A stretch of 64,000 nucleotides of DNA, from the NCBI GenBank assembly GCA_030248135.1, contig JASANC010000913.1, forward strand, positions 1-64,000, read 5' to 3'. The notes under the pieces are model-generated. The model was not told the origin of the DNA, made no database searches, and saw only the letters and a program-made list of their open reading frames with translations. The position numbers and the translations under genes are program-made. Position 1 is the first letter of the stretch. Every line of letters begins with the position of its first letter. The DNA comes from Theristus sp. LFF4_11. Its lineage: Eukaryota; Nematoda; Chromadorea; Monhysterida; Xyalidae. Below are positions 34,961-59,076 of this stretch, one piece after another.

Positions 34961-37453
34961 ATGTTGCTGGGTGTGCTGATGGTCGTGTTGTTCGCGGTGC
35001 TTGCCTATATGCTCTATAAGTGCCACTACCCGGAACACTACCGCGACATGCAGTCCATTCCTGGACCAAGCCCATTTCCGATTGTGGGCAACTTTCTGCC
35101 CACTGACAACGAAGGTGCATGAGCGCCCTGTCTTGTTTGAACTTTATTTGAACTTGCCAAACGGTACAATTTGTGCTGCAGGCCAAACAAAATGTTTCAT
35201 CGATTTATGGTCGAGCGGAAGCCCCACAAAATTGAAGACGCTCAACAAATACTGGGTGTTTTTGTCAACAGCTGATCACGTTGAGGTACATAGAATGTAT
35301 TCCGTCTCCATTTCAAGTGTAACAAGCAGATAAAATCAAAATGAAACATATCTCTTTATTTACTTTATTAAATGATGAAACCATGTGAAGTGCGGCAGTT
35401 TACAGAAACTGCTGACCGACACGAACAATATCTCAAAAGGCTTCTTTTACACAATCGCTCACCCCTGGCTCGGCTGTCACAATTTACTGACCAGGTGAGC
35501 TGAGGCGTCTTGAATTATTGGTCTTTTTTAGATGTCGATTGTGTTCACGTATTTTAGCACCGGAGCCGAATGGCACAGGCAGCGTCGTCTGCTGACACCT
35601 TCGTTTCATTTCGCCATCTTGAACGACATGGCACCCGCAATGAACGCTCATGTATCGCCATATAATTTTTCCCCAATCAATAATGATTTAGAGTCATCGC
35701 AAGAACTCTACAATTTCTACTCTACCTTTGAATGACACATTTTATTTTATTAGTTCATTTACTTTATGGTTTTTATAATAATTTATTAACAATGTTATTT
35801 CTCCAGGCATTGATTTTGCTGGATAAGTTCCGCGAATCAGTGAAAGTAGCCCGAGGTGCCAGTTTCGACGTGGTTCGCCACATAACCCTGTGCACTTTAG
35901 ATCTACTCTGCGAAACTGTGATGGGCATGTTCGTGCAATCGATTCCATGTGAAGTATGATCTATGTAAAAAAATTCAAATCTAATATAATTTCCAGCCAT
36001 TTGAACTCACAACACCTTCCGGAGCATCCGTACGCGCTGGCACTTGAGCAACACCAAGCTGCGGCCATGCTACGCGTGAGCAGTTTTGTAAGCATGATCG
36101 AGCCGCTCTACAAGTTGCTGCCGCGCTCGAGAACGTTCTATGAATCGATGCATGTCTTGCACAAGTTCACGCGAAATGTGCATACCGTTGCGATCATCGT
36201 TCTAAACGATTTTTTTAAGATTTTTTATCGTTTATTTGTAAGCAGCTGAGGACGGACCAAAACTGCGTATGAAACAGGTGATTCGCGAACGACTGGAGGA
36301 AGCGGAGCCTCGAACGAATGAACAAACTGATTGCAGTCCAGGCATCAATGATCGTGGAATTTCTACTGGAGTGTATGATGAACCGAAGAAACGGCCCGCG
36401 TTTCTTGACCTGTTGCTGCAGCTATACCGCGAAGGTCAACTCAGCCTGGAGGAAGTTCGACAACAAACAGACACGTTCATGTTTGAGGTGCGCATATGTA
36501 CACTATGCTCAGTGCAGAAATACCATACTTTTTAAAAGCTGCAAGTCATTGTAGGCCAAACTAGAGTCGCTGAAAAGCCGCTCTAATTGATGCGAACTGA
36601 AGTCAATTTTAAGGGACACGACACAACGATGATCGCAATCTCATGGGCGTTGTATTGTCTCGGGCGTCATCAGCAGCACCAGCAGCGATGTCAACAAGAA
36701 ATTGAAGAAGTCATTGGTTGGCAGCTTTGAGAGGAGATCTTTCAAAATTCAGGTCCTGTCCCGTTGTACACACACATTTAGCGCATCGGACTAATTGATC
36801 AGGCTCAAAAACATCAGTTGATCCAAGTGACTTAGCGCGCTTGAAACACTTGGAATGCTGCATAAAGGAGTCGCAACGATTGTACGCCACTGTGCCGCAA
36901 ATTGGCCGAACATTAACACAGCCTCTCAAACTTGGTAATAGAACGTTTTTGAAAAGCGCAATAGTTTGCGGGAGACAACGAATCAGCAGTGATGTGGTGA
37001 CACATGGCACATGCTGACGTTGCAGATGACAGCTGCACCCTGCCGGCTGGTGTCACCGTGAGCATTGCGTCCTTCGCGTTGCACCGTGATCCGCAGCAGT
37101 TCACGGATCCGTTGCACTACGATCCGGCTCGATTCAGCGCCGAAAACACAACGAGGCAGCATCCATTCGCGTTTGTGCCGTTTTCGGCGGGACCGAGAAA
37201 TTGCATCGGTTTGGTGGTTTCGATGAATTTTTGTATTGTCCAGGTCATTACGCCGCATTTGTTAAATCTGTCAGCAAAACAGAAGCTTTCAGCGCAAAAA
37301 TTCGCCATGATGGAGATGAAAATTGTGTTGGCTCATATTCTGAAGAGCTTCACGATCACGAGCACGCAAACAGCCGACGAGATGAAGCCGTTGTTTTTGT
37401 TTATTAACCGTCCGATGAATGGCGTTCACTTGATAATGGAACCCCGCAACTGA
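34961..37453 (+). CDS. CYP4: Cytochrome P450, CYP4 type
   Basis: Eleven exons (34961-35114, 35182-35285, 35406-35494, 35558-35651, 35807-35928, 35997-36177, 36251-36487, 36614-36716, 36803-36934, 37026-37208, 37293-37453) give 519 residues. An N-terminal membrane anchor precedes the hinge [16 protein letters not shown]4 landmarks follow: [33 protein letters not shown], the I-helix EGHDTT (near 328), the K-helix ESQR (ExxR) and the heme-binding FSAGPRNC (Cys near 465), ending KFAMMEMK. Such enzymes are ER monooxygenases, often of fatty acids or hormones. A splice acceptor 13 nt before the ATG points to a 5' UTR intron or leader trans-splicing. Two doubtful points: joining exons 1 and 2 drops a helix that is readable in another frame, and the exon 10/11 junction gives CIA instead of CIG, which the family tolerates. 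The exon 6/7 junction is approximate. Confidence 0.88.
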
Positions 37454-41056: not shown

Positions 41057-41406
41057 TCAGAATCGTACACGTTGACTGAACATGTCATCGGCGAAGTCCT
41101 GACGTTTCTGACCAGCCAACGGAAACGGGTACACAAAACTGAGTCGACGCCGACCACTGCTTGCTTCGTCTGTGCCGTCCACATGGCCGTCTTGTATCCT
41201 TTTGCCTAGTCCCATTGTCATTAACCACCGATGCTTCGGAGGGCTGTTGTCACTGGAACGATTTGAAGTCCAAGCATGTACAGCATAACATACGTACAAG
41301 TGTGCATAGAACTCAAGCTTGGAACCTACCGTTTTACATTGGAACAACGACTAACAAATATTGAAGCAGTCAGAAGAACCAGCATAATATGGAGCTTTGC
41401 GGCCAT
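41057..41406 (-). CDS. Putative neuropeptide precursor D (Gly-Leu-amide type)
   Basis: Two exons (41330-41406, 41057-41252), joined in phase 2, give 90 residues. Residues 1-21 form a clear signal peptide (MAAKLHIMLVLLTASIFVSR then Cys). Basic cleavage sites lie at KR25-26, GKR42-44, GRRR59-62 and KR75-76. Expected products are a peptide 27-41 ending WLMTMGL-amide, a spacer 45-58 with a possible amide, a 63-74 peptide LSFVYPFPLAGQ, and a C-terminal 77-90 peptide beginning Gln and ending QRVRF at the stop. Signal peptide, spaced dibasic sites and Gly before basic pairs are the classic layout of neuropeptide precursors. I recognise no named family. Confidence 0.72.
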
Positions 41407-42271
41407 TTTTGTGGACTGTAGCCGTGCTATTGCATGAATGTCGGTTTTTGTTTTGATATCCTTAATGGTAGAAATTGTCAAAAAACAAGAATATAAAACC
41501 TAGAAAAAAAATCAAAATTTCGGCACATAACTTTAAGCAACCAGTTTGATTGAATTTCACTAAACTAAAGAGTTCCCTGAGATGTAATTCATTCTCCCAG
41601 CCTCATCACCTGGGTTTTAACGGCCCCACAGTCCACACACAGAGCACAACACAGCAACAGCACAAAATACGCTGAAATGACACAGGTTCTATCATCTGCT
41701 TTTTGCCGGAAGTGTTTTCTGACTGAAATATACATGTGGTTCAACTTGACTTCGTGCTGAGGTTTGAATGTGACTAATGGATCCCAACACGAGCAAATTA
41801 CGTCTGGGTAGCGGAGTACAGAGGACATGAAGGTAACCAAACCAACAACATGTACGTGTATCACGGCCACCCTGGAGAAACTGAATTTTTTTTGTACATA
41901 TTTTTATACAATTAGAGATAGAGATAAAACCTCCTACTTATTCAAAAATCAATGTATTCATTAAGCCATTCTTTATTAATTAATGCCATCCTTCATTGGT
42001 TCACTTTATGTATGTATGAAGTGGATTCAATGTATGGATTCGCCAAATCTCAATAAATATCAATTGGATCGCAGAACGTTCGGGAAACTCATATATAATC
42101 AAAAAAATTGTCATGGTCAAAAGCGAAGATAATAAGCAGTAGCTAAATCGTGCCATTTTGGAGTCAGTCGAGCAGCCGCAGGATTAGACATTTGAATTTG
42201 ACGAATCAACTGGCGTGCTCGGGCTGCGTTTCTATGCGGGGAAAACACAAAAAAATGTGAGGAAAATTAAA

Positions 42272-42763
42272 TACGGTACAGTCTGGCATATAAAACGCCG
42301 TACAGCCGAGCGAATAAAAATTTGTTTTTATGGGTGAAATTTCTGCAGACACCGTCAAATGACTACCCACCCACCCTCATTAACAGCTTTGTGTGGCCGC
42401 CATAGTGTTCCTCTTTTTCAGTTTCTCGCACATTGTGATTTGCTTTTCAAATAGTTTTGGTTCGCTTCCCCGATTTTTTGCATTGTATTCGACATTCGAC
42501 AACGACGCTTCTGAATCCCAACGACGTCGCCATGAAATGAAACAAAAGTTTTGAGACGTTTTGTAATTGACATTCATCGCCCTTTTATAAACGTCTTCTG
42601 TCGTTCCACGGCAAGAAATGGGGCAAAAACAAAACAACGGTCTGGTTTTTGACAGTTGTAGGATTTTTTAAAAAAACGTTTTGGCTTCTTGCCCGTAGAC
42701 ACTCCACCCTTTTCGTTGGGGGCGGGCTTATAAAGCGCCTTATTTGCAAGTCTTTACGGTACG
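42272..42763 (-). mobile_element. MITE family B, diverged copy
   Basis: The right end TTTGCAAGTCTTTACGGTA with CCCTTTTCGTTGGGGGCGGG is the family B terminus in reverse orientation. The left end TACGGTACAGTCTGGCATAT is a degraded partner. It is followed 40 bp on by another family B start. Confidence 0.6.
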
Positions 42764-42802
42764 TGCAAATGGAAATTGCGATTTTGAATGAATAGCTATA
42801 CC

Positions 42803-43350
42803 ATACCGTAAAGTCTTGCAAGTTCTTTCCACTGATAAAACCCTCCCCCAAAAGTGAACAGACTGTCATACGGCGTGAAATTAAAAAATTCAAAATTTTG
42901 ACTTTGTCAAAATCCCACCACTGGGGTTACGTCGTCGTGTCTTGTTCATTATGGTTACAATGCCACAGAAAAATTGGAATAAACTGAAGAAAATTATCTG
43001 AACAGCAAATCTCAACTTATGAGCACTAAAATCAAAAGCACGACCACAACGAGTCGTTTTTCGTCGTCGGACAAACGGAGGGAGCGGAGGGGAGACCCGC
43101 GATCAAAGGTGACTTAAGTTATGAGCACTAAAAAATCTGAAACACAACGACGACGGCGACAACAACGACGACGACATCGTCGTCTACATGGGGTACGGGG
43201 GCGGGGGCAGCAGAAAATTTGACGGTGAACCGACAGCTAAAACGGTGGTTGAAGCTCAAGGTTCCACCCTGTCAAAATCTGGACAGAAAACACGAATTTT
43301 TGCTAAAAAACGACACTATGCAAGTGAAAAAATTAAAAACAACAACAAAA
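42803..43350 (+). mobile_element. MITE family B, long form, copy 2 (right end unclear)
   Basis: It starts TACCGTAAAGTCTTGCAAG, then GTCATACGGCGTGAAATT. From about 42940 it matches the interior of 15345-15953 (GTTACAATGCCACAG, TTATGAGCACTAAAA, a GAC-rich tract), partly duplicated. I could not place a clean right terminus. Confidence 0.55.
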
Positions 43351-43359
43351 GTTAGAACA

Positions 43360-44204
43360 AACGAGTTGTAACGTGGCCAAGCGCCTGACGCAGGGTTACT
43401 CCAGATTCTAAAATAAGTCCATTAAAACAAGATTTAAAAAATCGTGCAAGAAAATTGAATTCAGCAACTTGCTGGGGAAAGAAATTCGCGTTGAAGAAAA
43501 CTGATCGTTTATTTAGCCCTTCGTTATTCGATGGCTTGATTCTCGCACTGAAAAAAAAGTCGAAATGTATAATTTATTTAAATTTTTTACAATCGTTTGA
43601 GCATGGAAAATTTTGCTAAAAAAGGAAAACTTACCGGCTTTGCTGCCGCACTGCAGTGGTCGTTTGCAAAAAGCAAATTACAATCACAGCCACAAATAAT
43701 GACAATCTTGATGACATCATGAATTTATAACGTTTCATTCATACCTTGTTGGCCGGTGTCATGCCGGCATCTGCAAGGAGGTTTTATTGCTCATTATTCC
43801 TTTTGTTCATTTCATGGCTTTTCTTTTTGTTTCATTGGAAGAAAGGTTCAACGCAGATTTTTCATTTTTTCAGCTGTTTTTTTTACATAGTGTAGCTTGA
43901 TTTTGTGTCCGGAACGTTAAAGTTTGGTTTTTTGGTCACGATCTGGCAATAATCCACTGCATTATTAACCCATTATAAGATAAGCCGTCTAGTAATTTTG
44001 AAAAACGCTATATTTTGCCGAATATTCAGTGTGATTGCACAAATTTATCTGTTTCCTATTTCTATGAGTACTCTCTTGTCTTGAAAGATTTGCCACATTG
44101 TATGAAATGACGCAACATTTACAACCGAAGATACTGCTGAAGGGAACCTTGTAAGGCCAAAGAAGCCGCAAAGTTGTAAGTTCCTGCAATGCGTCTATCA
44201 GCAT
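43360..44204 (-). CDS. Possible small gene or precursor, exons uncertain
   Basis: Several short minus-strand segments sit between good splice signals: ELTTLRLLWPYK before a GT donor (near 44150-44185), a 26-nt piece at about 43745-43770, a 16-nt piece near 43644-43659, and a final open stretch from about 43545 to 43363 of some 60 codons containing NEGLNKRSVFFNANFFP. The last frame has a dibasic site, as in the neighbouring precursors, but I found no signal peptide or start that joins in phase. This may be a decayed or unrelated gene, or chance. Confidence 0.25.
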
Positions 44205-44437
44205 CCTTTATGAAGTATGATATTTCAGCAATTTTCTGTGCCAAATCAAGTAAACATGCGCGTGCTTTATTAACAGCTGTATTTGCTGTAGTTAAAAACT
44301 TTGTGGATTTTCACTTTGCGGAACAGCACATCAGAATGTAAGGACATATTAGCCTAGTGCAATAGATCTTTTGTGTTATACTGTATCGCAAAAAGCCACA
44401 CACACACAACCATCGATTAGTCGATATCAATGTCTGA

Positions 44438-45843
44438 TCAAACATTTCTATCCGTGACCCAACCGATACGCAGCTCTCGTTGCGGCATCGGAAACGGCGA
44501 CACAAACGTCAACTTCATCAGTTTGTTTGCGTGCGCCTTGCGGAAACGAAACAATTCGCTGGCGCGCTTCCGCGGATGCTCGATTGCCAGCATTCGACCG
44601 TTGCGCTCAGCCGCGGCGCTGGACTTGCTGAAATGAAATTCATTGGTTTTACTGGATGTAATCACAAAACGACATGCTACAGGGCACGCCGAAAAAATTC
44701 ACAAATTTAGAGAGAGTGTGTCATCAACCAACTTGTTCGGCTTTAGTGCCATCAGCAGACGCTTGTATTTCCAGTTGCTTGTTGTTCCCAATTTTTTTGT
44801 GCTGAAAAACATTGACATAAAACCTGAAAAAAGGTGTTCACATTTCTAGAATTGAGTGGTCTTACCCTAAATCGTTCGTAATAGCTGGTAACAAATAGAA
44901 CAGCCCGGTATGTACGCTAGAGCTGAAAGTAGTAAAAGTATAGTGAAATTTCCAAAGCTAGACGTGCTGTATTGTCGTTGCTTTTAGTTTTCTTTGATTC
45001 AATGCGTTAGCAAACGTCCAAGGGAATCAGTTTCATGCTTGATGCGGAAATTCAAAACGACCCTAGTGACTCAACCGTATCTGAGGACACGGGCCACTTC
45101 ACCAATTTTGAATTCCCGCGTCAAGCATGAAACTGCTTTTTTTATCTCAATGCGTGCATTGAGTCGCAAACCAATACAAAAGAGAAAGCGAATGGATTCT
45201 CAAACTCGTCATGTGAGTAGCGCACCGTTTTGCCGATCGATCGAAGTCAACCGGTACAAACCACACGTCGTGGCCGTCACGAATCACGCCTCGTTTGCCG
45301 AAACGCAGCTGCCGAAACGAAGGAAAGCTGCTCGGAAAAGAGGCTGCATAACAATATTGACTTGACAACGATCTGTGTTTCATCCAAGGTGAATCCTTCA
45401 AGGCATAAATCTTGAAGCGGTTTACCAAAATCGAGAAATAACCACGTGACGTTGATGTATACATGATGACCACATCAGATCTTCGTTTCATCCTTTCCTA
45501 AGCCGGTGCCTGTTCGACTAACCTCCTGTTCAGCCGATGTTTTCCGTCATACGGAAACACGACTTTTCCGTCATACGGAAACACGACACTCAGCCGGGGC
45601 ATCGACGCCAAGTAGCCGAAGCGAGTGGATGCGGCGCGTTTGCCGCTCGCGACGGTGTGCTCAATCGGGGAGGCCTGCTCGTCACTGAAGTGAAACGAAC
45701 GTTCTCAGTCGTCAAAGACATTTGCAGAATGAACACACTGTTCCTTGATGGAAGCCACCACACCTGACAAAAATCGGCGTTGGAAAACCGCTACACGTCG
45801 CCAAGGTTGCCACGAACGTGACAACCCAGTTTAGTGAGCACAT
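44438..45843 (-). CDS. Putative RF-amide neuropeptide precursor A
   Basis: Six exons (45764-45843, 45523-45684, 45226-45327, 44866-44922, 44729-44801, 44438-44623) give 219 residues. Residues 1-19 are a signal peptide (MCSLNWVVTFVATLATCSG). Basic sites: GKR41-43, GKR91-93, KR114-115, KR147-148, RKR176-178. The best product is SFPSFRQLRF-amide (81-90; preceded by a single Arg). Others are a 44-90 extended form, 94-113 (GVIRDGH...DRSA) and 116-146. Near the C-terminus ELFRF is followed by Arg-Lys with no amidating Gly. The exon with QLRFGKR starts and ends in phase 2, exactly like the corresponding exons of the genes at 50.6 and 51.9 kb. A 24-bp duplication repeats VVFPYDGK in frame. This looks like a brain or endocrine secreted peptide source; the receptor is unknown. 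Confidence 0.75.
44993..45172. mobile_element. Inverted-repeat element, family G, copy 1
   Basis: The outer ends TTTGATTCAATGCGTTAG and GTGCATTGAGTCGCAAA are inverted repeats. Inside, AATCAGTTTCATGCTTGATG pairs with TCAAGCATGAAACTG. It lies in the third intron of precursor A. A related element is at 48034-48215. Confidence 0.65.
45537..45588. repeat. 24-bp in-frame tandem duplication in precursor A
   Basis: The unit TTTTCCGTCATACGGAAACA(CGAC) occurs twice head to tail, adding eight codons (VVFPYDGK) in frame. The unit itself holds a TTTCCGTNNTACGGAAA palindrome. Confidence 0.9.
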
Positions 45844-46002
45844 CAATGGCGGTTGTTAGATGTTCGTATATCCGATTACACTGAAAAATATTTTGACGAT
45901 TTTGAGACAAAAATTGGGGGAGCAGGCCGCAAAAATCGGTCGGAACCGAAATCATCAAATTATCTGTCCGGATCGTTTGTTTCTGACGTGAAGACTATGG
46001 GT

Positions 46003-46065
46003 CTCCGTATTGCACGCTGTTCTAACAGTTTTATCGGAGTTTCATGCGTTTTCCAAAGTAAATGC
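46003..46065. repeat. Diverged copy of the CGGAGTTT/AATGGATGG retroposon tail
   Basis: GGGTCTCCGTATTGCACGCT...TTTTATCGGAGTTTCATGCG matches the block at 53936-54016 (GGGTCTCCGAATTTTCATGC...CTTTATCGGAGTTTCCTGC). The ATGGATGG end is lost. It lies between precursor A and the EB protein gene. Confidence 0.6.
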
Positions 46066-46853
46066 ATATCAATGAAAGAGAACAAACAATCACCAAATCA
46101 TACGCCAATCATAATTTTATTCAAAAATTTAAAGCTGCACTCTGATTGATTATTGTACAACAAAACATATATACACACTGCGTGAACGTCACAACTGACG
46201 CAGGTTATCTTCTAAATCTCTAAATCTCTGATAAATATCTGATTCATAAAACAAAAACTTTTTGTTAAAAATACAGTAGATGATGCTGGGTTTGTTGACG
46301 CTTGACGCAATTCGGTCCTTCCGGTTTTCTTTTGCTGCGCCATCTGTGAAGGTGCCCCGGAAACCACTTTCACCTTACAGACATTTACCAACAGGCTTTT
46401 AACAGAATCTTTATATCGTTGTACAGGGTGTCTTGAAATACAGGGTGGCTAATTTGCGTAGATACACATTATGCATGTATGTATTTTCAACAATTTACAC
46501 AACACGCGCACGTTCACAACCGCATTTCACAGGATATGGCTAAATGCGTTGGCAAAAACATTTTTATAAAAAACATTTTGAACGAAAATTTTTTTTTCTT
46601 CAGCTATTTTTTACAGATGAAACCGTTCAGGTTCAAATATGATTGTGGAATTCGCTGTTCACAATCAAACACTCACAATTCAATGCAAATGTCAAGTCAC
46701 CGTCATGAAGCTGCACAGACACAGATGCTTTTTAATCAATCGCAACACGACTGTTCAGTTGATGAATAATTTCCCCAATGGCATTGTAAAAAGCGGTGCG
46801 GAGCGCAACCGAGTAGCATTATCAATGCACACATTTCACAAACGTCGGTAGTT

Positions 46854-46860
46854 TATAAAA
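46854..46860 (+). promoter_or_regulatory. Candidate TATA box of the EB-domain gene
   Basis: TATAAAA stands 60 bp before the start codon at 46920, on the correct strand. The distance allows a 5' UTR of about 30 nt. The sequence alone cannot prove use. Confidence 0.35.
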
Positions 46861-46919
46861 AATTCATACGAAGTAAGCATAAAGCCGTTGGCTTTCTTGT
46901 GTCTTAGTCTGCAACAATA

Positions 46920-49292
46920 ATGCCCTCATTGTTGCTCGCGCTCTTCCTCTTGATCATCACTATCAACCGTTCAATTTCGGAGCCGACTGGTGAGTTTACA
47001 AAACCCTCTGTCAAGCGAAAAGCTGCACAAAAAAACACAGTTTTAGATGAAACTTAACGTTTTCAAAGAAACACTTTAAAACTTGATTCTATTGCAGATG
47101 CATGTAAAAATCGGACGTTTGAATTGATAGAACCGTCGAAATGCCGCCAGAATTACACGGTGCAGCCGATGGAGTATGACTTCTATCGGCTCGTGCGTAA
47201 CCGGTCCAGCGGCGACTGTTTGACTGAGTGGGAATACTGCGTCATTGAGCCCGCCGACCCAAAAAACGGTGTGCTCCTACTTTTTGGCGTTTTTTATGAT
47301 CAACCTGCAGGTTGTATGTGTTGTCCTGGAAAAGAAAACATGTCCTTGAGCCTGTCCATCTCTGTTCATGTTCTGCCGTTTTCACGTCCCAAAAATGGTA
47401 AAAAAACGTGGTGATGACGGCTGTCCAGCTTTGATTTTGAAAACACTTTTTGCGACAGGAAATGATAAGGGACAAGCTTGCGCACATTTTTTATTCCCGT
47501 GTCCATGTGTATTTTATTAAAACTTCAACAGAAAGCCTAACACAACCTGTTAAAAAACACTGGTGGGACTAAACTGCCAATGCAATGAGCATGCATTCAC
47601 CACGCAGGCGTCATACCTAACAGTTGCCCAGAAGAAGACTTTAACTACTGTGTTGGTGGTTGCACGTGCACTTATCTTAATCGGGCCGGATTCCGACAAA
47701 TTACATGTTGTTTTGGTTTGTTCTCCAGTAACGTTTTTTATTTGCATCAGGAAAAATTATGGAATTTGAGAAAAACTTGAACAATGATGCATAATATTTC
47801 ATAAAAACGCACAGAAAGTCAAGATGCTCGATGTTCCGGACTTGTTTCAGGCGAACCAGAGCAAGCAAACTCGTGCGTCTACAAAGGCAAGTCGTGTTAC
47901 GAGCCGAGTGGCAGCGAATGCAATGCAACCAGCCGCGTTTGTCAGTGTCCGGCTGGCACACGAGCCGAGCGCCGTGCGCCGCCACTGTTCAGCGTTTGTG
48001 CCGGTCGGTTCTGGCACCATGCCTTTTTGATCCCGAGACTCGATGCGCGCACAGATAGGTAAAAAGTGTCTCGCATGCCGCGGGAATTCAAACTTGGCAA
48101 AGTGACCCGAGTCCCCTAAATAGGGCCGAGTCACTTCGGCGAGTTTGAATTGCCACATAAAATTTTTTAAACAAGTTCCTCTTCTACGTCTGCATACGCA
48201 TTGAGTCGCAAAATCTAAAAAAATTGATCATATAGCTTCAGTTCATTTTCATGTGTTGAAATCGATAAAACAATTTGAAACTTATTCAGCGTTTACGAAA
48301 GCTGCAGCGGCATTTTTTAGTGAAAGCCGGCGGTGAATGCGGCAGTGAACAGGCGCACAAGTGTAACTGCACGCGCAAGAGCAAATGCGTCAACGGAATT
48401 TGCAAATGTGACAATGGATTAATTGCCGATTCAAGCGACGGTCTTTGCAAAGGTACAACAACATCACTAATTTACAGAATTACTAATTCGTCATTTTTGC
48501 CATGTCATTCGTCATTTTTCATGAATTTGGTGGTTGTCGTTGGGTTTGTCGATTTGTTTGTCATTTCCGGTTATTTCAATTGTTATTCGTTTTTTTATTC
48601 GTCATTTGCTTCGTCATTTCATGCGTCGTCTTTTTGTCATTTCATTCATCATTTGTTTTTCATTAGATATGTCAGTTAGTTTGTTGTTTGGTTTGTTCAC
48701 AGTTAGTTTGTTGTTTGGTTTGTTCATTCGTTATTTTGTTTGTCGTTTCATGAATCACTTGTATCATTTCTCTGTTATTTCATTCGTTATTTTGGATTTC
48801 ATTTGATTCCTCTTCGTCACTGTGCCTGTTTTCCGGTCTTTTCATTTGTTATTTTTTGAAATTATTTGTCATGCAATTCGTTATTTTGTCGGTCACTTAT
48901 TCGTCCTTTTGTTGGTCATTTCATTTCGTTCGTTATTTCGGCTCTTTTTACTTGTCAGTGCGTTTGTCTTTTCATTCCTCATTTTGTTTGTCATCTAATC
49001 CACCAAACCATTCTGCACAGTCCAGTGAAAAACTAAGACGTGTGCAAAATCAAACCAAATTTCTTCAATTTCAGTTGCGGTCGGGGGTCGATGCAACTTT
49101 GCCAAGTACGATCGCGACATCTGCTACGGCTACAAGGAAACATATGAGAAGTACAACTATGTTTCGGTGGACTCCATTTGTCGCAAGCAAACGCCGGCGG
49201 CATCTGAGGGTATCTGTGAATGTAGACCGGCAAGAATGGCGGTACATGGCCGGTGCAAATGGAAGTCATTGCATCAAATCATGAGGATCTAA
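46920..49292 (+). CDS. Secreted Cys-rich protein with EB/EGF-like modules
   Basis: Five exons (46920-46989, 47098-47268, 47851-48003, 48321-48452, 49075-49292) give 247 residues. Signal peptide MPSLLLALFLLIITINRSIS. Exon 3 has an EB-like module, SCVYKGKSCYEPSGSECN then RVCQCPAGT; exon 4 has HKCNCTRKSKCV then ICKCDNGLI; exon 5 has GRCNFAKYDRDICYGY and ICECRPARM. The repeated C-x-C-x(6-8)-G pattern is that of EB and EGF-like modules in nematode and arthropod extracellular proteins. Predicted N-glycosylation sites occur early (KNRT, QNYT). Every exon boundary is in phase 1, as is usual for extracellular module shuffling. Function unknown; probably extracellular matrix or cuticle-associated, or a binding protein. 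Confidence 0.83.
48034..48215. mobile_element. Inverted-repeat element, family G, copy 2
   Basis: It starts CCGAGACTCGATGCGCGC and ends GCATACGCATTGAGTCGCAA. Internal arms GAATTCAAACTTGGCAAAGTG and CACTTCGGCGAGTTTGAATT are complementary. It lies in the third intron of the EB-domain gene. Confidence 0.65.
48500..49010 (+). repeat. Low-complexity TCATTTNGTT tract in an intron
   Basis: The fourth intron of the EB gene is made of degenerate repeats around TCGTCATTT, TTTGTTTGTCAT and TTCATTCGTTATTTT. It gives long open frames rich in Phe/Ser/Val that are not coding. Confidence 0.7.
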
Positions 49293-49690
49293 TCACAAAC
49301 TCTCAACACATTGATCAACAAAACAGCGACTACTGTCAGTGAATGGTGCTGGAACCGAGTGACGAGTTCAAGAGGTTGATCTGAAAAATAAATTATACAG
49401 AACCCTTCGTGATTTAAGACTGGCTTGTATACAATATACGGTACATTCTTTTTCCAGTGTCAAATCTAGTAGTGCGCTGTTAGGAGCCTACAAATATACC
49501 AACAGTACGATAAAAACTCATTGGATCGTTCATTTGAATAGTTTCCATGTTACTGCTGCAGCTACATATGTTTTGGTTGCTATCCCAAATCATCGAACAG
49601 TATCAAAACCGCACGTATCAGTCAATCTATCCAAACATTGTATGTACTTATTGCTCTGTGTGCTCACGCACCGCAGGTGGCATGTTCATC

Positions 49691-50872
49691 TCAGACGGCC
49701 AGAGATTGCTGCAAGTTTAATGATTTTTAAGTGGTTGAAAACTGCTTGTAACCAATCAACGTTCAACATAAAAAACAATCACGAAGCGGCCACAAGTAAA
49801 AGCAACAATGAAGGGAAGCAAGCTCTGTTTTGTGTGATTAAAAAACGCAAGCACCAGTACCTGAGCGTCGGCGAACGTTTGCGAACGTTTGAACATTCTC
49901 ATCGGTCGTAGCATGTTGCGAAGCATTGCCAGTGTCTTCCTGCAAGTCAGGAGTATTGTTGAGGGTGGAAATGACACTTGCATGAAAATATGAAATTATA
50001 CAATATGGAATTTTAAATCAGTATTTACTCGTTCAGTTGCGGTGAATCGGCGCGTCGATTGAACGGATTCGGGCGCAAGACGTCGGCCGAATTGAAACCA
50101 AACAGCCTGCATTATAGTTTCAATATTTGCAAACTTTCATCTTCATGTACATGACTCTCAATCTGAGAGAACACAAACGCGCACGTGTTGTAAGTGTATC
50201 GCGGTGGCAGCTCTGGGAAACTCGAGAACGGGCTTCGCTTCTGCACTGCATTGTTCATTCGGTACAGCACTTTGCTGCAAAGCAATCATATTTTACGTAC
50301 TTGTTGTATGAATGTTTGAAAATGATTTCGAATGGAACCATTTCGATTGGAAAAAAAACACGTTCGAATGGAACCAGTTCTTTTCACATACAATCGAACA
50401 ATACAAACAGATACACATACACAAAAAACAAAATACACAAAAACAAACACAATAAAAATAAATCATAGGGAATTGGTTAGTAATCGTGATGCATGCATTC
50501 TGTGCAAACCAAATTCCGCCTCCCCACGCCAACACATGCACAGAAAGCATGCGTCACGTTAGCACCCCACCAACCAATCAGCTGATTCCCTATAATTTAC
50601 AGTTCGACGGTACTGTACCTCGGAATCTGCATCGGTATGAACGAGAAGCGCTTTCCAAAGTGGAATAACGCGTGTTCGACACTGAAAGTACATATGAGAA
50701 AGGGTTATGAAAAGTAAGATGAAAACGACAACATGATCACAATCAACCGTAGTGGGCTTGCCGCCAGCCCCTGTTCAGACTGTCTTCGTTTTGAAATGCC
50801 TGCTTCCGGGTGTGCGAAGCAAACAGCGAACATCGTGACGCTCAGCACGACTAAACGCACGCTGTACATCAT
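49691..50872 (-). CDS. Putative RF-amide-like neuropeptide precursor B
   Basis: Exons 50748-50872, 50619-50681, 50185-50274 and 50025-50106 give a 119-residue protein ending NPFNRRADSPQLNE. Residues 1-20 are a signal peptide (MMYSVRLVVLSVTMFAVCFA). KRR at 28-30 and GKR at 51-53 bracket a peptide of 20 residues that begins with Gln (possible pyroglutamate) and ends HALFHF-amide. Further sites: KR before SPFSSFPELPP and RR before ADSPQLNE. The amidated motif is on a small phase 2-2 exon as in precursors A and C. The stop TAA overlaps a good donor (GA|GTAAAT). If it is spliced, exons 49861-49939 and 49691-49708 extend the protein in frame to 150 residues with KTLAMLRN...MFKRSQTFADAQ, adding another KR. 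Both ends are possible. I know no named family with this peptide. Confidence 0.74.
50466..50622. mobile_element. Degenerate fold-back with a family A-like terminus
   Basis: The right part, CCAACCAATCAGCTGATT...AGTTCGACGGTA, resembles the family A end. AGGGAATTGGTTAGTAATCG on the left pairs loosely with CAACCAATCAGCTGATTCCCT. It occupies most of intron 2 of precursor B and reaches the splice donor of exon 2 (GTACAG is within the TIR-like end). Confidence 0.5.
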
Positions 50873-51403
50873 GTTCAACAATTGTGGCCGTTCAGTTTTG
50901 ATTAGGTCTTGAAAAGAAAGTTAATAACAAATAAATATTATGTTTCTGTTTGTCTGATTCCATAACTACGTGATTTTAAGAGCAAAAATCACCACTGGCT
51001 GATTCTTTGAATAAACACACATTTCACGTTTCCCATTGAAGCCTTTCACAACAACGTGTGTGCCGGAAACTGATGTTGTTGTTCAGTACAACAACCTTTT
51101 GTCATTAATGGACTTTTCTTGCCACAGTTGCTTATTATTATCTTATCCGGTGATGAATTAGGCAGTACTTTTAAAAATGATCTCTAAAACGGCTGGTCAA
51201 AATTCAGGAGAGCCAGTCAAAAGCAAATAGATAATTAAGGGCAAAGTTCTATCTGTTGAGCACTTAAACACACATTCAAACTTTTTTCATCATAACCAAA
51301 TAAACAGAGACACTGTGCGCATATTAGCATTTTAGGTCGTTGTTTTCCTGATGTTGTTTAATTGCTACCACACGGCGGATGGGTGTTGCGCCAATTTTGC
51401 GTC

Positions 51404-51446
51404 GGAGATTCCTGCTTTTTCGCGCAATAAAATGGATGGATGGACA
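51404..51446. repeat. Retroposon 3' tail ending in (ATGG)n
   Basis: CGGAGATTCCTGCTTTTTCG then AATAAAATGGATGGATGG, matching the end of the block at 53936-54016. It looks like the 3' end of a non-LTR element with a short tandem tail. Confidence 0.6.
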
Positions 51447-51752
51447 CACGGTGCACATGAGCGATGCTTGTGAGCACATCTGCTGAATGCGTGGGCTCGC
51501 TCGGACGCTGGTCCACTGCAGCGCTCCTAATTCACCATTCCAGAGCCCAGACTTCAAGCTTTAAAATTGCAACCGGTTTCATCTTTTTATTAACATTATT
51601 GTAACATTGTATAATGAACTAATGTACATGCAAATCTCTTTTCTATTTTATGTTAATGTCATTTCTTATTATTCAAACCATAATTTTTCAATAAGATATC
51701 ACAAGTACAGTAAGTAAGTACGTATTACGGAACTTCTTTCTAAAAAAAGCAA

Positions 51753-52495
51753 TCACTCATTGCCGTATGCCCCGTTTTCTGAGTTAGCACGATCGAGCCT
51801 TTAAAAATGAAGAGAAAACGATTACAAAGAAATTGTAGATCTAAAGAATTTTTTACTTATATGTAGTCAACAAGGATATTTTTGCTGTAACCATCAATAA
51901 AACTAACCATGGGTGAATGTTCTTCGTTTTTGGCAAGTGCCAGGAACGTTTGCCGAAACGAAACAGCGAACTTTCATCGCTGAAAGAAACCGGTCACGTA
52001 CAGAATGGCCGAGTAAACATGGCAGTTTTTTTCAGGGTGCAAGGAGCGCGCGAAATTTGAATGCAAGATAAAAGGCATTCAGAAACCTGATCGTGTGTCA
52101 AATTTGACGTGTTTTTTATACTACGTACCATTAATTCTTCGTGCTATTCTGTTCATTCTATCTCCTTTGCACAAACAATTGGGAACAACCTTGAAATTCT
52201 TGACAAGACAATTCCTAGTCTGCGACTGATCCCGCCTTGAAGGACTGCCTTATTTATTCGGCCACACTGTAGTTGAAAAAAAAATTCACACGACACCAAG
52301 ACATATACGGTTTTTTAAAATGGAACAACACACACACGAGCCACCAAAGCAAACTAATTTTGTCATCACCAACTTTATCGGGTGGTAAGCACGCCGCTGA
52401 GGCAACTGCTGCGGTCGTCGATAATGTTGCCGATATGCGCAAACGTCCACGGCAAGCAACCCGGCAGCAACCACCAGCAACAAGGTTGTCAGCAT
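51753..52495 (-). CDS. Putative LFRF-amide neuropeptide precursor C
   Basis: Exons 52338-52495, 51908-51979 and 51753-51798 give 91 residues. Residues 1-20 form a signal peptide (MLTTLLLVVAAGLLAVDVCA). RR pairs occur at 26-27 and 34-35. Residues 54-64 read DESSLFRFGKR, an amidation and cleavage signal for a ...SSLFRF-amide. A C-terminal part SWHLPKTKNIHPWLDRA... ends GNE. The exon with LFRFGKR begins with one base of a split codon and ends with two, as in precursor B, where VEHALFHFGKR lines up residue for residue. This supports local duplication. The donor of exon 1 (GT after GGCTC) is the least sure point. The end GA|GTGATT could also be a donor. LFRF-amides are known in molluscs and other protostomes; membership is inferred from the motif only. 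Confidence 0.74.
51999..52271. mobile_element. MITE family E, copy 3
   Basis: The ends TACAGAATGGCCGAGTAAAC and TTATTTATTCGGCCACACTGTA are inverted repeats with TA at each border. The interior has TGCAAGGAGCGCGCGAAATT and CGACTGATCCCGCCTTGAAG. Opposite orientation to the copies at 34 kb. It lies entirely in intron 1 of precursor C. Confidence 0.8.
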
Positions 52496-53398: not shown

Positions 53399-56300
53399 TC
53401 AAGCTTTACAACACTTTCTGCGTTTTTCAACGGTCATCTCAAGTTTCAAAGCGTTCTCCAAATGTTGATCCTCTCGTTCTTGCAAGTGGCTTAAACAAAA
53501 CCATGTAGCTTGAAATCGCTATGTTTATTAAATGTCGTGTATTATTGCACAATGAGCCGATACTTACACAGCCATCGCCTTCATACACTCCACAATGCCG
53601 TCGCCGCTCGAGGCACTTGTTTCAAAGAACAGGCATTGAAATTCCTGAAAGCAGTTGGTGAAAAAAAGCTCAAGGTTCCAGAGCTGCGTTGAGGCTATTA
53701 AGTAGCTGGAATGGCTGGACCGCCTGATTTTCAAAGCATCATACGAGAAACTAACGTTCCTCCTTGACAATCAGGCAGCGTATCAGCTAAAGCCATTCCA
53801 AATGACGTGGAGCTCGGCTTGCTGCCGTTGTTTGGTGTTGCAAACTGTCTCCGAATTTCATTGGGTCTCCGAATTTCATTGGGTCTCCGAATTTCATTGG
53901 GTCTCCGAATTTCATTGGGTCTCCGAATTTCATTGGGTCTCCGAATTTTCATGCTGTTCATACAGCTTTATCGGAGTTTCCTGCTTTTTCGCGGAATAAA
54001 ATGGATGGATGGATGGTCAACAACAACGACAAAAGCCTACTAACATCAGCCAGACGCTCTCCGTCCTTGAATCGAACCGCGCGACTGTCCTCGTCCTCGC
54101 AAACGTCCACTTTGTTGCCGACCATGCAAACGACGCAGTTCTCTTCGACGCCCTCCTGCGAAACAAAAACTGCTCTAGATTTTGTTTCTGCAACAATTCA
54201 AGAAAACACCGCGCAGACAGCAGACCTTGACGCTGTTCATCCAGTTCCGGATGTTCACAAACGACAACTCTGAGGTGACGTCGTACATCATCACGACGCC
54301 GTCCGCTTTCCGAAAGTACTGCTTTGTGATGCTACGAAATCTTGGAGCAAACACAAACGGAATTCCGCTTGAAAGGTTCAGAAATCAATTGAAAACAGTG
54401 TGAAACAAGAGCGTGAGCCTGACCGTTCTTGTCCGGCGGTATCCCACAGTTGCAACGCTATCACACGGTCGCCAACACGGATTGATTTCACGGTGAAGTC
54501 AACTCCTGAAAGTATCGTTTTTTTTTGCGTCTTTCTCTGCATTTTTCTGTCAATGTCAATTTTAAAATTACCCTCAATAACGTAGCATATTTTCGTGACC
54601 TACCAATGGTCGCGCTGAACGTGGGCTTGAATCGATTGTAACAGAAGCGATGTAAGAAGCAGGTTTTGCCAACCCCTGAATCCCCAACGAACACCACCTT
54701 GAATATCCGATCGGGCGTCGCATAGTCAGCCTTGCAAGAAACTTTTAAAATTACATAAACTAAAACAACTACAAGTTGGAAAACTTTGTAACTTTGTGAA
54801 AAAAAAACAACGTGAACGTACAGCGTCGCTTTCAGAGTCCGTTGTCACGCCGAATGCTTGCATCTGACCGGATTGCCTGCAATTTTGCAGCCCGCTGTCT
54901 TATTTCCACTGATTTCAATTCGCATTCACCCTGTCCTGGTTTGCAGTTGTTGCACATTTTACCTATAAATTGGTGCAGCTGCACCTCCAGCACCGGCTTG
55001 CTGCAGTTCGGCTGCTAGCGAATGATTCGGACGAGGCAGGACAGTGGCGATGCGGTCATGGTGAGCGTTCGGCATCAGAATCTACAAACATCTATGAGCT
55101 CCGTTCAATTATACGACAAAGCGTATACGTGAATGCACAGCACATGAACGATGTCGGGCACCTCGTCCTCTTCCACATCATCATCCTCAATGCCACGGCT
55201 CAGATCGTGACCCGCCGAATGCTGTGCGCCCACTTGCAACGGATCGCTACCGGACATTGCTAAACCGCCGGCGAATTGTAGATTCGGTGAGTTCGATTCC
55301 CTCTGTCGTTGACTTAAAGTGGAAGTTGACATTATAAAATGCAACTGGAAAATTGTCAATAACAAGCTTTGACAGTGACGAAAAATCTCCACTGGAGAAT
55401 TTGCTTACTGTCCCATCTCATCCATCAAATTTAGTTGTCCACTGCTGCTTGAACCACCTAGTACTTTGATTTCATCTCGCTCATCTTGCAGTTGTTTGTT
55501 TCGTTGTCTGAAAAACGAACCGCCGAGAATGCTATGTATTCACAGTACAGTCTATTTCTGCTAAACTTCAACTGATCAAATCTGAAAACCAACCGCAGAC
55601 TATCGAGGGTCTGAACCAAGTCCTCGCGTTCGGAGGCAATGTTCTGCGACACCGCAAACGTCTGCTGTGCTCGTTTTCGCTTCTCTTCTAACGTTTTCTG
55701 TCGCATCAGTTCCAGTTGCTCTCTGTATTCTTCATAAGACTTTCGTGTACCTTCGAGGTCCCGTTCCATTTTTGCTTTTTCGCGCAAAAACGATTCGCGT
55801 TCCTACAATGATGTACACGTTCAAAGGTGTGACTGTTGGCAACACCGATATTCAAACAAAAAAACTGATCAGCCATTCGATACTGAGAACAGCTTGCGTG
55901 CGAAATATGATATCAGCTTTGTTCCAATACTGAATAAAAAAATGTTTCGTACCTTTTGCAACGAATCATTTTCTTGCTCTGTCATTGCTTTCACTGAGTC
56001 CAGTTCCTCCAATTTCTTTTCAAGCTGAAATCACTTTCATGTACTATTGGCTTTCGAGAATTGTTTGGTTATTTTTTATTTTATTTGGTTAGATTTCGAG
56101 AATTGTGAAACCGAATTTGTTTCACACCAGATGTACCTCGCCGTGTTTCTTCAATATTTCTTGTATCTGACCGTCGCGTTCACTGATTTCGCGTTCCAAC
56201 TCCTCTCGCAATCGTTCTGCTCGTTCTCGCTCCTAAACACATTCTGCATTGATGGTCTTGCAAATCAATAATAGTTCACAGCGAAACTAAGCAACAGAGA

Positions 56301-57801: not shown

Positions 57802-59076
57802 TGTATTCACCTGTTTTTGCAAGGGCCAAGCGTCACATGAACACTGTAAAAAGCTTCGTGCTCTTTAGTCTTTACCCGGTTTTTAAAAATTGCAATCGCT
57901 TTTGTCTTTGTGTGATTTTAATACCAGAAGCCTGAAATACCGGTATAAAGCAGATTTTGTTGACAAAAAGCGAAAATTAACCGAAGCACTCCTACAGCGC
58001 CGCAACATGTGTCACTTTGAATAGAAATTCAAATATAACAAAAATGGTACCGCAGTTTTTGAAATAAATGTAGAAACCACCAATGGTGATTTAGCTGTTA
58101 CGAACTGTTATTGCTCTTACACGGGAACACAACAGAGACAGCGCACAAGCGCCGTTTGAAGTGTATTAATTTTATTTTCGATATAAAGCGAAGCGATTGT
58201 ATGGACATTGTACCTGGCGTAAGCATGTGCCTGAGACAGTTCTCTCTATGGGCAGTTTGGTGTTAGCTTTTGATTTCGTTGATCCAAATGTTCTGTTTAA
58301 AAATATGAAATTTTATTTGAAAAAAAAACGATCCCGAACGAAAAAGCTACAGTGCATTCCTGTGTACTGTAACGCACCATCGCTGTGCTGTCCACATGTG
58401 TATGCCAATAAAACACCGCACTGAAGGTTTATTCAGCTTTCCCCACACGAAGGAAATTTCGGTGTATTTCCATATTGTGAAACGCGCAACAGCTAACGTT
58501 GCGTGGGATTTAGCTTTTTATTGCCAGTGGCAGCATGTTTTCTGTTCATACATACCTACACAGTTTCAAACACCAGCAGGTTGAAGTTGAAAACGCTTGT
58601 TTGTTTCTTTTGTATCTGTGCTCGCTTGGATTTTTGAAAATAGGGAATAAACTACATATATTGGTCAGTGAGTGTTCTGTGATTGCTATTTCTGTGTCAT
58701 TTAATACGAGTTGGGTGGGGTGCGTTGTCATACATGTAGGGTATGTGTGTCTTGTTCAGGCTCAGGTGAGGTGTGATACAAATCGAGATGATGGTCAGGT
58801 CAGATAATGTTGTTCACTTCTTCACACAGTTTACAATGTAAAGCATATGGCTCTTAAAAACACAACACGCATTCGTAACGTTGACAACAGCATATACACA
58901 AACAGCCTTATTGATTTTTTTGCACCCAAACGCATTTTACAGCACGCATTTCAGTTCTACCACTTTCTACCAGTGATAAAAACCTCTCGTTTGATTTTTT
59001 CTCGTTTTCCTTGCAGAAAGAGCTTTCCCATTTTCAGCGTATAACGTGCGTGTTTCTTCTACTGTTAGTTGAAACG
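57802..59076. other. Divergent promoter region of RASEF-like and XK-related genes
   Basis: 1.3 kb between the two start codons. AT-rich, with no coding exon I can support on either strand. The promoters of both genes should lie here, but I see no distinct motif. Confidence 0.5.

What the first reader, a model, noticed from the sequence alone, without database searches (positions are those of the whole stretch)
41057..52495. Cluster of four short secreted precursors with amidation signals, three apparently duplicated in place
In 11.5 kb, four minus-strand genes each encode a signal peptide, dibasic sites and at least one Gly-Lys-Arg. In three (45.3, 50.65 and 51.9 kb) the amidated motif lies on a small exon bounded by phase-2 introns: QLRFGKR, HALFHFGKR and SSLFRFGKR. 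The last two align residue for residue (VEHALFHFGKR, DESSLFRFGKR). Precursors with these traits usually yield neuropeptides. I recognise no described family for the set as a whole, so this may be a local, lineage-specific expansion.
Basis: partly seen in the sequence, partly recalled or inferred. Interest (0 to 1): 0.92.

Follow-up and report, generated by a model that had tools for sequence, protein, structure and literature searches.

The report
Nematode cluster of new neuropeptide genes
Five neighbouring genes on one strand of a nematode contig are predicted to make short secreted precursors that would be cut into neuropeptide-like signals; the first two share sequence and an intron at the same spot, so they are likely tandem copies, and searches found no relatives elsewhere in this genome or, for the two longest, in a very large protein collection.

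Summary
A whole-window scan finds 3 phase-2 joins of leader to G[KR][KR] exon (G1, G2, G3) against 0.17 expected. Coding scores favour the claimed frame in 13 of 19 exons and in each gene's total. The 159-Mb genome is a nematode's: it holds flp-1-, -6-, -8-, -14-, -17-, -18- and -22-type genes. The precursors find only themselves in it; G2 and G3 have no relative at E<=1 among 5.8 billion proteins, while a flp-1-type control found 57. Duplication is supported for G1/G2 (p=0.0017, same intron position); for G3 it rests on exon architecture. A second motif, [KR]L[ST]FVxPFP, links G3 and G5. Best reading: a lineage-specific cluster of FLP/NLP-like neuropeptide genes, comparable to the flp-2/-3/-28 cluster but placed in no described family. 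Expression and processing are untested.

The parts
51753..52495 (-). G1: 3-exon precursor, 79 aa; exons 52495-52374, 51979-51908 (SSLFRFGKR), 51798-51753
   Evidence: GT/AG, both introns phase 2; found by the window scan; claimed frame best in total, by a small margin: 14.3 against 11.1 bits
51908..51979 (-). G1 exon 2, amidation exon (N)DESSLFRFGKRSWHLPKTKNIHPW
49691..50872 (-). G2: 6-exon precursor, 150 aa; exons 50872-50748, 50681-50619 (HALFHFGKR), 50274-50185, 50106-50029, 49939-49861, 49708-49691
   Evidence: first four introns phase 2, last phase 0
50619..50681 (-). G2 exon 2, amidation exon VEHALFHFGKRFSFIPMQIP
44438..45843 (-). G3: 6-exon precursor, 219 aa; exons 45843-45764, 45684-45523 (ASGKR, STRFGYLASMPRLSVVFPYDGK), 45327-45226 (QLRFGKR), 44922-44866, 44801-44733, 44627-44438 (SELFRFRKA...KLTFVSPFPMPQ)
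   Evidence: all five introns phase 2
45226..45327 (-). G3 exon 3, amidation exon (S)FPSFRQLRFGKRGVIRDGHDVWFVPVDFDRSAK
   Evidence: another frame of this exon scores slightly higher (0.42 against 0.36)
43352..43738 (-).
   Evidence: phase 2; claimed frame best for both exons
41057..41406 (-). G5: 2-exon precursor, 90 aa; DNSPPKHRWLMTMGLGKR and RRRLSFVYPFPLAGQKR
   Evidence: phase 2
44490..44512 (-). second shared motif, copy in G3 exon 6 (LTFVSPFP)
   Evidence: one of 6 matches in the 159-Mb genome
41121..41143 (-). second shared motif, copy in G5 exon 2 (LSFVYPFP)
   Evidence: one of 6 matches in the 159-Mb genome
45540..45587 (-). perfect 24-nt tandem duplication in G3 exon 2, doubling VVFPYDGK
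   Evidence: family D7, 100%

Best explanation
This is a local cluster of five minus-strand gene models in a nematode genome that are predicted to encode secreted precursors, likely processed into short neuropeptides and likely grown in part by tandem gene duplication. Shown by sequence and calls: five leader-plus-propeptide models joined by 14 GT/AG introns, 13 of them phase 2; glycine-dibasic sites in four of the five; ungapped similarity and an identical intron position between G1 and G2; no second copy found in the genome. Inferred, not tested: the leaders route the chains into the secretory pathway; a PC2-type convertase cuts at KR/RR; a carboxypeptidase trims the basic residues; an amidating enzyme turns the exposed glycine into an amide. 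Cutting at dibasic sites alone would give AYHPINDESSLFRF-NH2 (G1), QSEQGLAASPLRVEHALFHF-NH2 (G2) and DNSPPKHRWLMTMGL-NH2 (G5), with LSFVYPFPLAGQ as companion; G3's QLRF-NH2 would end a 47-residue chain unless a single arginine is also cut, which would give SFPSFRQLRF-NH2 or shorter. The products would be released from dense-core vesicles and act on G-protein-coupled receptors. Symmetric phase-2 exons can be copied or swapped without breaking the frame, which would explain how the cluster grew and diverged.
For: Gene models and phases. Whole-window scan: 3 phase-2 sites against 0.17 expected, max 1 in 30 controls. Claimed frame is the best of six in 13 of 19 exons and in the total of all 5 genes. 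G1/G2 p=0.0017 over 29 ungapped residues across the same phase-2 intron column. The [LF]-x-FVxPFP DNA pattern occurs 6 times in 159 Mb, 2 of them in this cluster; none of the other 4 has dibasic sites on both sides in the stretch read. Host has classical flp genes and part of a copper type II monooxygenase domain above the Pfam cut-off, a family that holds the amidating enzyme but also dopamine beta-hydroxylase (recalled). The five precursors match only their own exons in the genome, 17 matches.
Against: No transcript, peptide or receptor data. Similarity beyond G1/G2 is weak: 6 of 78 exon pairs have p<=0.05, about 4 expected; over whole propeptides only G1/G2 of 10 pairs is below 0.05, and the sum over all pairs, G1/G2 included, gives p=0.041. 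The five gene regions share a single 14-nt nucleotide match at E<=0.1, G1/G3, and the FGKR codons concerned recur in this genome's other flp genes. Six of 19 exons do not score best in the claimed frame: G1 exons 1 and 3, G2 exons 5 and 6, G3 exon 3 (the QLRFGKR exon) and G5 exon 1. The nine classical flp-type loci read all repeat their peptide, whereas each cluster gene has its amidated peptide once. G4 has no GKR. G1, G4 and G5 were not searched in the large protein collection.
Confidence: 0.7

Rival explanations
1. Neighbouring but unrelated neuropeptide genes: G1 and G2 are a duplicate pair, while G3, G4 and G5 arose separately and share only generic features (leader, dibasic sites, amidation).
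For: Only G1/G2 is below 0.05; G4 matches nothing; G5 ends in GLamide, not RFamide; one search finds one 14-nt match only.
Against: 13 of 14 phase-2 introns; G3 exon 3 has its GKR 9 residues after a phase-2 junction codon, against 8 in G1 and G2; rare FVxPFP motif shared by G3 and G5; all five on one strand in 11.5 kb.
Confidence: 0.35
2. The cluster makes secreted antimicrobial or other effector-like peptides rather than neuropeptides, as the C. elegans nlp-29-type arrays do (recalled).
For: Clustered, diverged, secreted short precursors without detected relatives.
Against: C-terminal LFRF/LFHF/LRF plus G-K-R on small exons is the anatomy of neuropeptide precursors; no glycine/aromatic-rich array; no cysteine-rich predicted product.
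Confidence: 0.12
3. G1 is a nematode orthologue of the molluscan LFRFamide (short-NPF-like) gene, and the others derive from it.
For: G1's product would end in SSLFRFamide, a peptide listed for Fusinus ferrugineus and Crassostrea gigas in PMC4208409 (passages).
Against: The Aplysia, Sepia and Crassostrea precursors described there carry several LFRFamide-type peptides; G1 carries one. So short a motif can converge. G1 itself was not searched in the protein collection.
Confidence: 0.07
4. The models are artefacts: chance open frames and splice sites strung together by eye.
For: No expression data; 6 of 19 exons do not score best in the claimed frame.
Against: as a whole; GT/AG sites at all 14 introns.
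Confidence: 0.05

Closest known systems
Nematode flp-2/flp-3/flp-28 gene cluster (PMC4405611 passages; PMC11658156 section 11)
   Same: Neighbouring nematode neuropeptide genes, inferred duplicates whose motifs have diverged until little more than the C-terminal end is shared
   Different: [quoted passage not shown] here no glutamate synthase domain was seen in the 20 ORF stretches scanned, the termini are RF, HF and GL amides, and the internal exons are mostly phase-2 symmetric
Nematode FLP (FMRFamide-like) precursors
   Same: Leader, dibasic sites, RFG-KR in G1 and G3; C. elegans flp genes have 2 to 6 exons (PMC4196577, passage), as here
   Different: One amidated RF peptide per gene; no FARP domain hit; G2, G4 and G5 have no RFG-KR
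Molluscan LFRFamide / short-NPF-related gene (PMC4208409 passages)
   Same: G1 product would end in SSLFRFamide
   Different: Single copy, different phylum; precursor relationship not tested
C. elegans nlp-5/nlp-6 (MGLamide/MGFamide; PMC3414713 passage)
   Same: G5 contains MGLGKR
   Different: G5 has one copy and no GGMG context; a query of nlp-5/-6 peptides matched C1658 and C3671, not G5, though C1658 reads GGMSMGKR and C3671 was not read
C. elegans RPamide cluster nlp-2/-22/-23 (PMC8764417 Results section)
   Same: Clustered neuropeptide genes with related products
   Different: RPamides; no such terminus here

Membership tests
Nematode FLP gene | N-terminal signal peptide | tested here: met
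   Hydrophobic leader in 5 of 5 models by reading; hydropathy scans list G1, G2, G4, G5 and G1, G2, G3; no SignalP
Nematode FLP gene | Peptide ending RFG before a basic cleavage site | tested here: not met
   Met in G1 and G3; G2 has HFGKR, G5 GLGKR, G4 none: 2 of 5
Nematode FLP gene | Sequence relationship to a described flp gene or the FARP domain (PF01581) | tested here: not met
   No PF01581 reported in 5 of 5 with E<=10 (weak matches are mostly filtered); G2 and G3 no hits at E<=1 while a flp-1-type control gave 57. G1, G4, G5 not searched there
flp-2/-3/-28-type cluster | Neighbouring duplicated neuropeptide genes with diverged motifs | tested here: met
   G1/G2 p=0.0017 with shared intron position; cluster within 11.5 kb
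flp-2/-3/-28-type cluster | Location in a glutamate synthase intron | tested here: inconclusive
   No glutamate synthase domain among 20 ORF stretches of the window scanned with Pfam; scan not exhaustive
Molluscan LFRFamide/sNPF | Amidated LFRF terminus | tested here: met
   G1 SSLFRFGKR only; G3 exon 6 has LFRF but no glycine
Molluscan LFRFamide/sNPF | Several LFRFamide-type peptides in one precursor (Aplysia, Sepia, Crassostrea) | tested here: not met
   One copy in G1
Molluscan LFRFamide/sNPF | Activation of an sNPF-type receptor | not testable with these tools
   Needs a receptor assay
nlp-5/nlp-6 | Repeated MGL/MGF amides in one precursor (recalled) | tested here: not met
   G5 has one MGLGKR; not among the 9 matches to an nlp-5/-6 peptide query
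Neuropeptide precursor (general) | Transcript joining leader and peptide exons; mature peptide in neural tissue | not testable with these tools
   No RNA or mass data

The most novel reading that the evidence does not exclude
One symmetric phase-2 exon module, carrying an amidated LFxF peptide followed by an unamidated FVxPFP companion, was copied between and within genes to found a private neuropeptide family of this nematode lineage, in which the amidated end has switched from RF to HF and GL, and with it probably the receptor.
Probability: 0.22. Interest if true: 0.62.

Novelty: new member of a known kind. Interest (0 to 1): 0.45.

Why it matters
Neuropeptide genes can diverge so fast that their duplication history is masked, as PMC11658156 says of the flp-2/-3/-28 group. 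A cluster in which two copies are still alignable across a shared intron, and neighbours show graded loss of similarity, would let one watch new peptide ligands arise and test whether receptors follow. It would also add unlisted peptides (LFHFamide; FVxPFP companions) to nematode ligand libraries.

Tried and rejected
COX1 for naming the species: no match in the assembly. Trans-splice leader SL1: no match with up to 1 mismatch and no SL1 family match (where no control rang, so uninformative); the clade stays open. Rfam at gathering score and ARAGORN: nothing in the window. Pfam: only sub-cut-off matches for three of the precursors. PDB by sequence for G2: one match at E=0.27. Search for further [LF]F-x-FG-x-R exons: 65 pattern matches against 37 for the reversed control; I fetched 40 of the 65 and saw the motif in a printed frame for 27 of them (20, 7); by my reading, besides the two cluster exons only C922 lies in a precursor-like frame; 38 of 65 were not read. 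G5 as the nlp-5/6 orthologue: not supported. One operon for all five: unlikely, a plus-strand gene lies between G2 and G3 (by reading). DNA identity between the G1 and G3 amidation codons as proof of duplication: rejected, the same codons recur in the genome's other flp genes. An alternative frame in G2 exon 4 (AVWFQFGRR) needs another donor and scores below the chosen frame (0.20 against 0.53); in exon 5 the two frames tie (0.24 against 0.23). Papers: searches; LFHFamide and LFRFGKR occur in no paper held, ALFHFG once in an unrelated plant paper. The first codon-score run had one training fragment in a wrong frame and was replaced.
Full report
What was checked. The window is nearly all of contig C585 (64,984 bases) of a 159-Mb assembly held as G000. 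I read the minus strand from 52.6 to 41.0 kb and built gene models whose junctions were verified by script. G4 is a fifth, with a leader and dibasic site but no GKR. All 14 introns are GT/AG; 13 are phase 2, the last one of G2 is phase 0.

More than chance. A scan of both strands of the whole window for a hydrophobic leader, a donor, a pyrimidine-backed acceptor and an in-frame G[KR][KR] soon after it, with criteria set after the genes were known, gave 7 leader sites, all on the minus strand; 3 are phase 2, namely G1, G2 and G3. Thirty first-order Markov controls gave 0.53 sites on average (range 0-4), 0.17 for phase 2 (at most 1). The scan missed G5 by its pyrimidine rule and listed four sites outside the models. 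A codon score trained on 1,235 codons of other open frames in the window prefers the claimed frame over the five others in 13 of 19 exons and in the sum for each of the five genes. The exceptions are G1 exons 1 and 3, G2 exons 5 and 6, G3 exon 3 and G5 exon 1; the margin for G1 as a whole is small (14.3 against 11.1 bits), and G4 and G5 have low totals (2.5 and 3.1).

The host. A search with repeated KHEYLRFGKR brought loci whose frames read KHEYLRFGKR (C2411), KNEFIRFGKR in three neighbouring blocks (C3373), KPNFLRFGKR (C2310), KSAFVRFGKR (C3303) and KSAYFRFGKR (C3441); a second search brought PGMMRFG/GVLRFG (C3352) and DMKWVRFG/STKWVRFG (C544, C1063) precursors. These are the nematode flp-14, -8, -1, -17, -6, -18 and -22 types (names recalled). 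The flp-1-type protein finds 57 proteins at E<=0.001; those that carry a species name are nematodes (Elaeophora, Panagrellus, Trichinella, Trichuris, Soboliphyme and others, identity at most 58%), and the two best are unnamed JGI proteins at 63 and 69% identity. So the animal is a nematode; its species and clade are open.

Is the set known or repeated? The five precursors as one query matched only their own exons in the genome, 17 matches, all on C585. G3 and G2 found nothing at E<=1 among 5.8 billion proteins; the flp-1-type query is the positive control. The limits are that candidates must share 5-residue words, that unannotated genomes are not covered, and that G1, G4 and G5 were not searched. 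Pfam gave no family above its cut-off for any of the five.

Relationships inside the cluster. G1 and G2 align over 29 residues without a gap, QQLPQRRAYHPINDESSLFRFGKRSWHLP with RQSEQGLAASPLRVEHALFHFGKRFSFIP, p=0.0017 with dibasic and GKR sites held fixed (0.017 after allowing for ten gene pairs); the phase-2 intron falls at the same column. That is good evidence of duplication. G3's QLRFGKR exon has the same design, GKR 9 rather than 8 residues after a phase-2 junction codon, but no significant sequence match; G1 with G3's last exon (SELFRFRK, no glycine) is p=0.051, and G3 with G5 is p=0.072. Across exons, 6 of 78 pairs reach 0.05 where about 4 would by chance. The sum over all ten gene pairs, G1/G2 included, gives p=0.041. 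The five gene regions share one 14-nt match and no more at E<=0.1. A second motif supports G3/G5: the DNA pattern for [LF]-x-FVxPFP occurs 6 times in the genome (reversed control 1), 2 of them here, in KLTFVSPFPM and RLSFVYPFPL; none of the other four has dibasic sites on both sides in the stretch read, though two have one on one side. The pattern was drawn from these two copies, so only their closeness, not their existence, is evidence. G3 exon 2 holds RLSVVFPYDGK with VVFPYDGK doubled by a perfect 24-nt repeat, an event of the kind that makes peptide copies.

How it likely works. Leader, dibasic sites and Gly-Lys-Arg predict secretion, cleavage and amidation. Part of a copper type II monooxygenase domain is in the genome above the Pfam cut-off; that family holds the amidating enzyme and also dopamine beta-hydroxylase (recalled), so this only makes the enzyme plausible. 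Cutting at dibasic sites alone gives the products listed; for G3 this leaves QLRF-amide at the end of a 47-residue chain, so a cut at a single arginine would be needed for a short peptide. Receptors are unknown. G1's product would end in SSLFRFamide, a peptide listed for Fusinus and Crassostrea in a review of molluscan RFamides (PMC4208409, passages); convergence is the simpler view, since G1 has one copy and the host is a nematode.

Compared with what is known. [quoted passage not shown] The present set resembles that cluster in kind but is not shown to be it: mixed RF/HF/GL termini, phase-2 exon modules, and no glutamate synthase domain in the 20 stretches scanned. PMC8764417 (abstract and Results section) reports novel nematode nlp genes, none with these motifs in the text read; supplements were not read. 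LFHFamide and LFRFGKR occur in no paper of the library.

Verdict. Novel as a set, ordinary in kind.

Noticed in passing
G000 C3373:24387-26046 (L003, L009, L011): Three successive coding blocks of KNEFIRFG peptides (flp-8 type), apparently a tandem triplication of that gene or of its exons.
   Followed up: partly
G000 C922:47782-47801 (L048): A frame reading FFRFGKRDVPDGLPRFGRMMPDGLPRFG, with SGPPRFGKR on a nearby frame: a possible further RFamide precursor of no type that I recognise.
   Followed up: no
G000 C1658:14880-15500 (L093): Fourteen head-to-tail copies of [AP]HFDSLGGMSMGKR (one reads LSGM) in 621 bases, a long neuropeptide-like array.
   Followed up: partly
G000 C3075:58142-58456 (L079): Ten copies of a xxIKPMRFGK[KR]-type peptide, the first ending in PIRFG.
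   Followed up: no
window 50029-50106, minus strand: G2 exon 4 is also open in another frame reading AVWFQFGRR, an amidation-like motif similar to those of G1 and G2; alternative splicing could use it, though the chosen frame scores better.
   Followed up: partly
window 46920-49284, plus strand: A likely secreted, cysteine-containing protein gene (leader MPSLLLALFLLIITINRSISEP) lies between G2 and G3 on the other strand; a degenerate repeat lies within its span at about 48.5-49.0 kb.
   Followed up: no
window 45025-45138 and 48082-48154; about 50460-50595: Fold-back elements: two related inverted repeats and, in a G2 intron, another palindromic, mobile-element-like stretch seen by eye.
   Followed up: no
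window 41629-41735, minus strand: A further leader-like open frame (MYISV... or MIEPV...) upstream of G5 with a GT donor in phase 1 or 0; no peptide exon was assigned to it.
   Followed up: no
window 20333-27672, minus; 34961-37453, plus; 54488-54844, minus; 58915-61816, plus: Other genes of the window: a class C receptor (ANF_receptor and 7tm_3 hits), a CYP4-like cytochrome P450 (by motifs, recalled), a Ras-family GTPase and an XK-related protein.
   Followed up: partly
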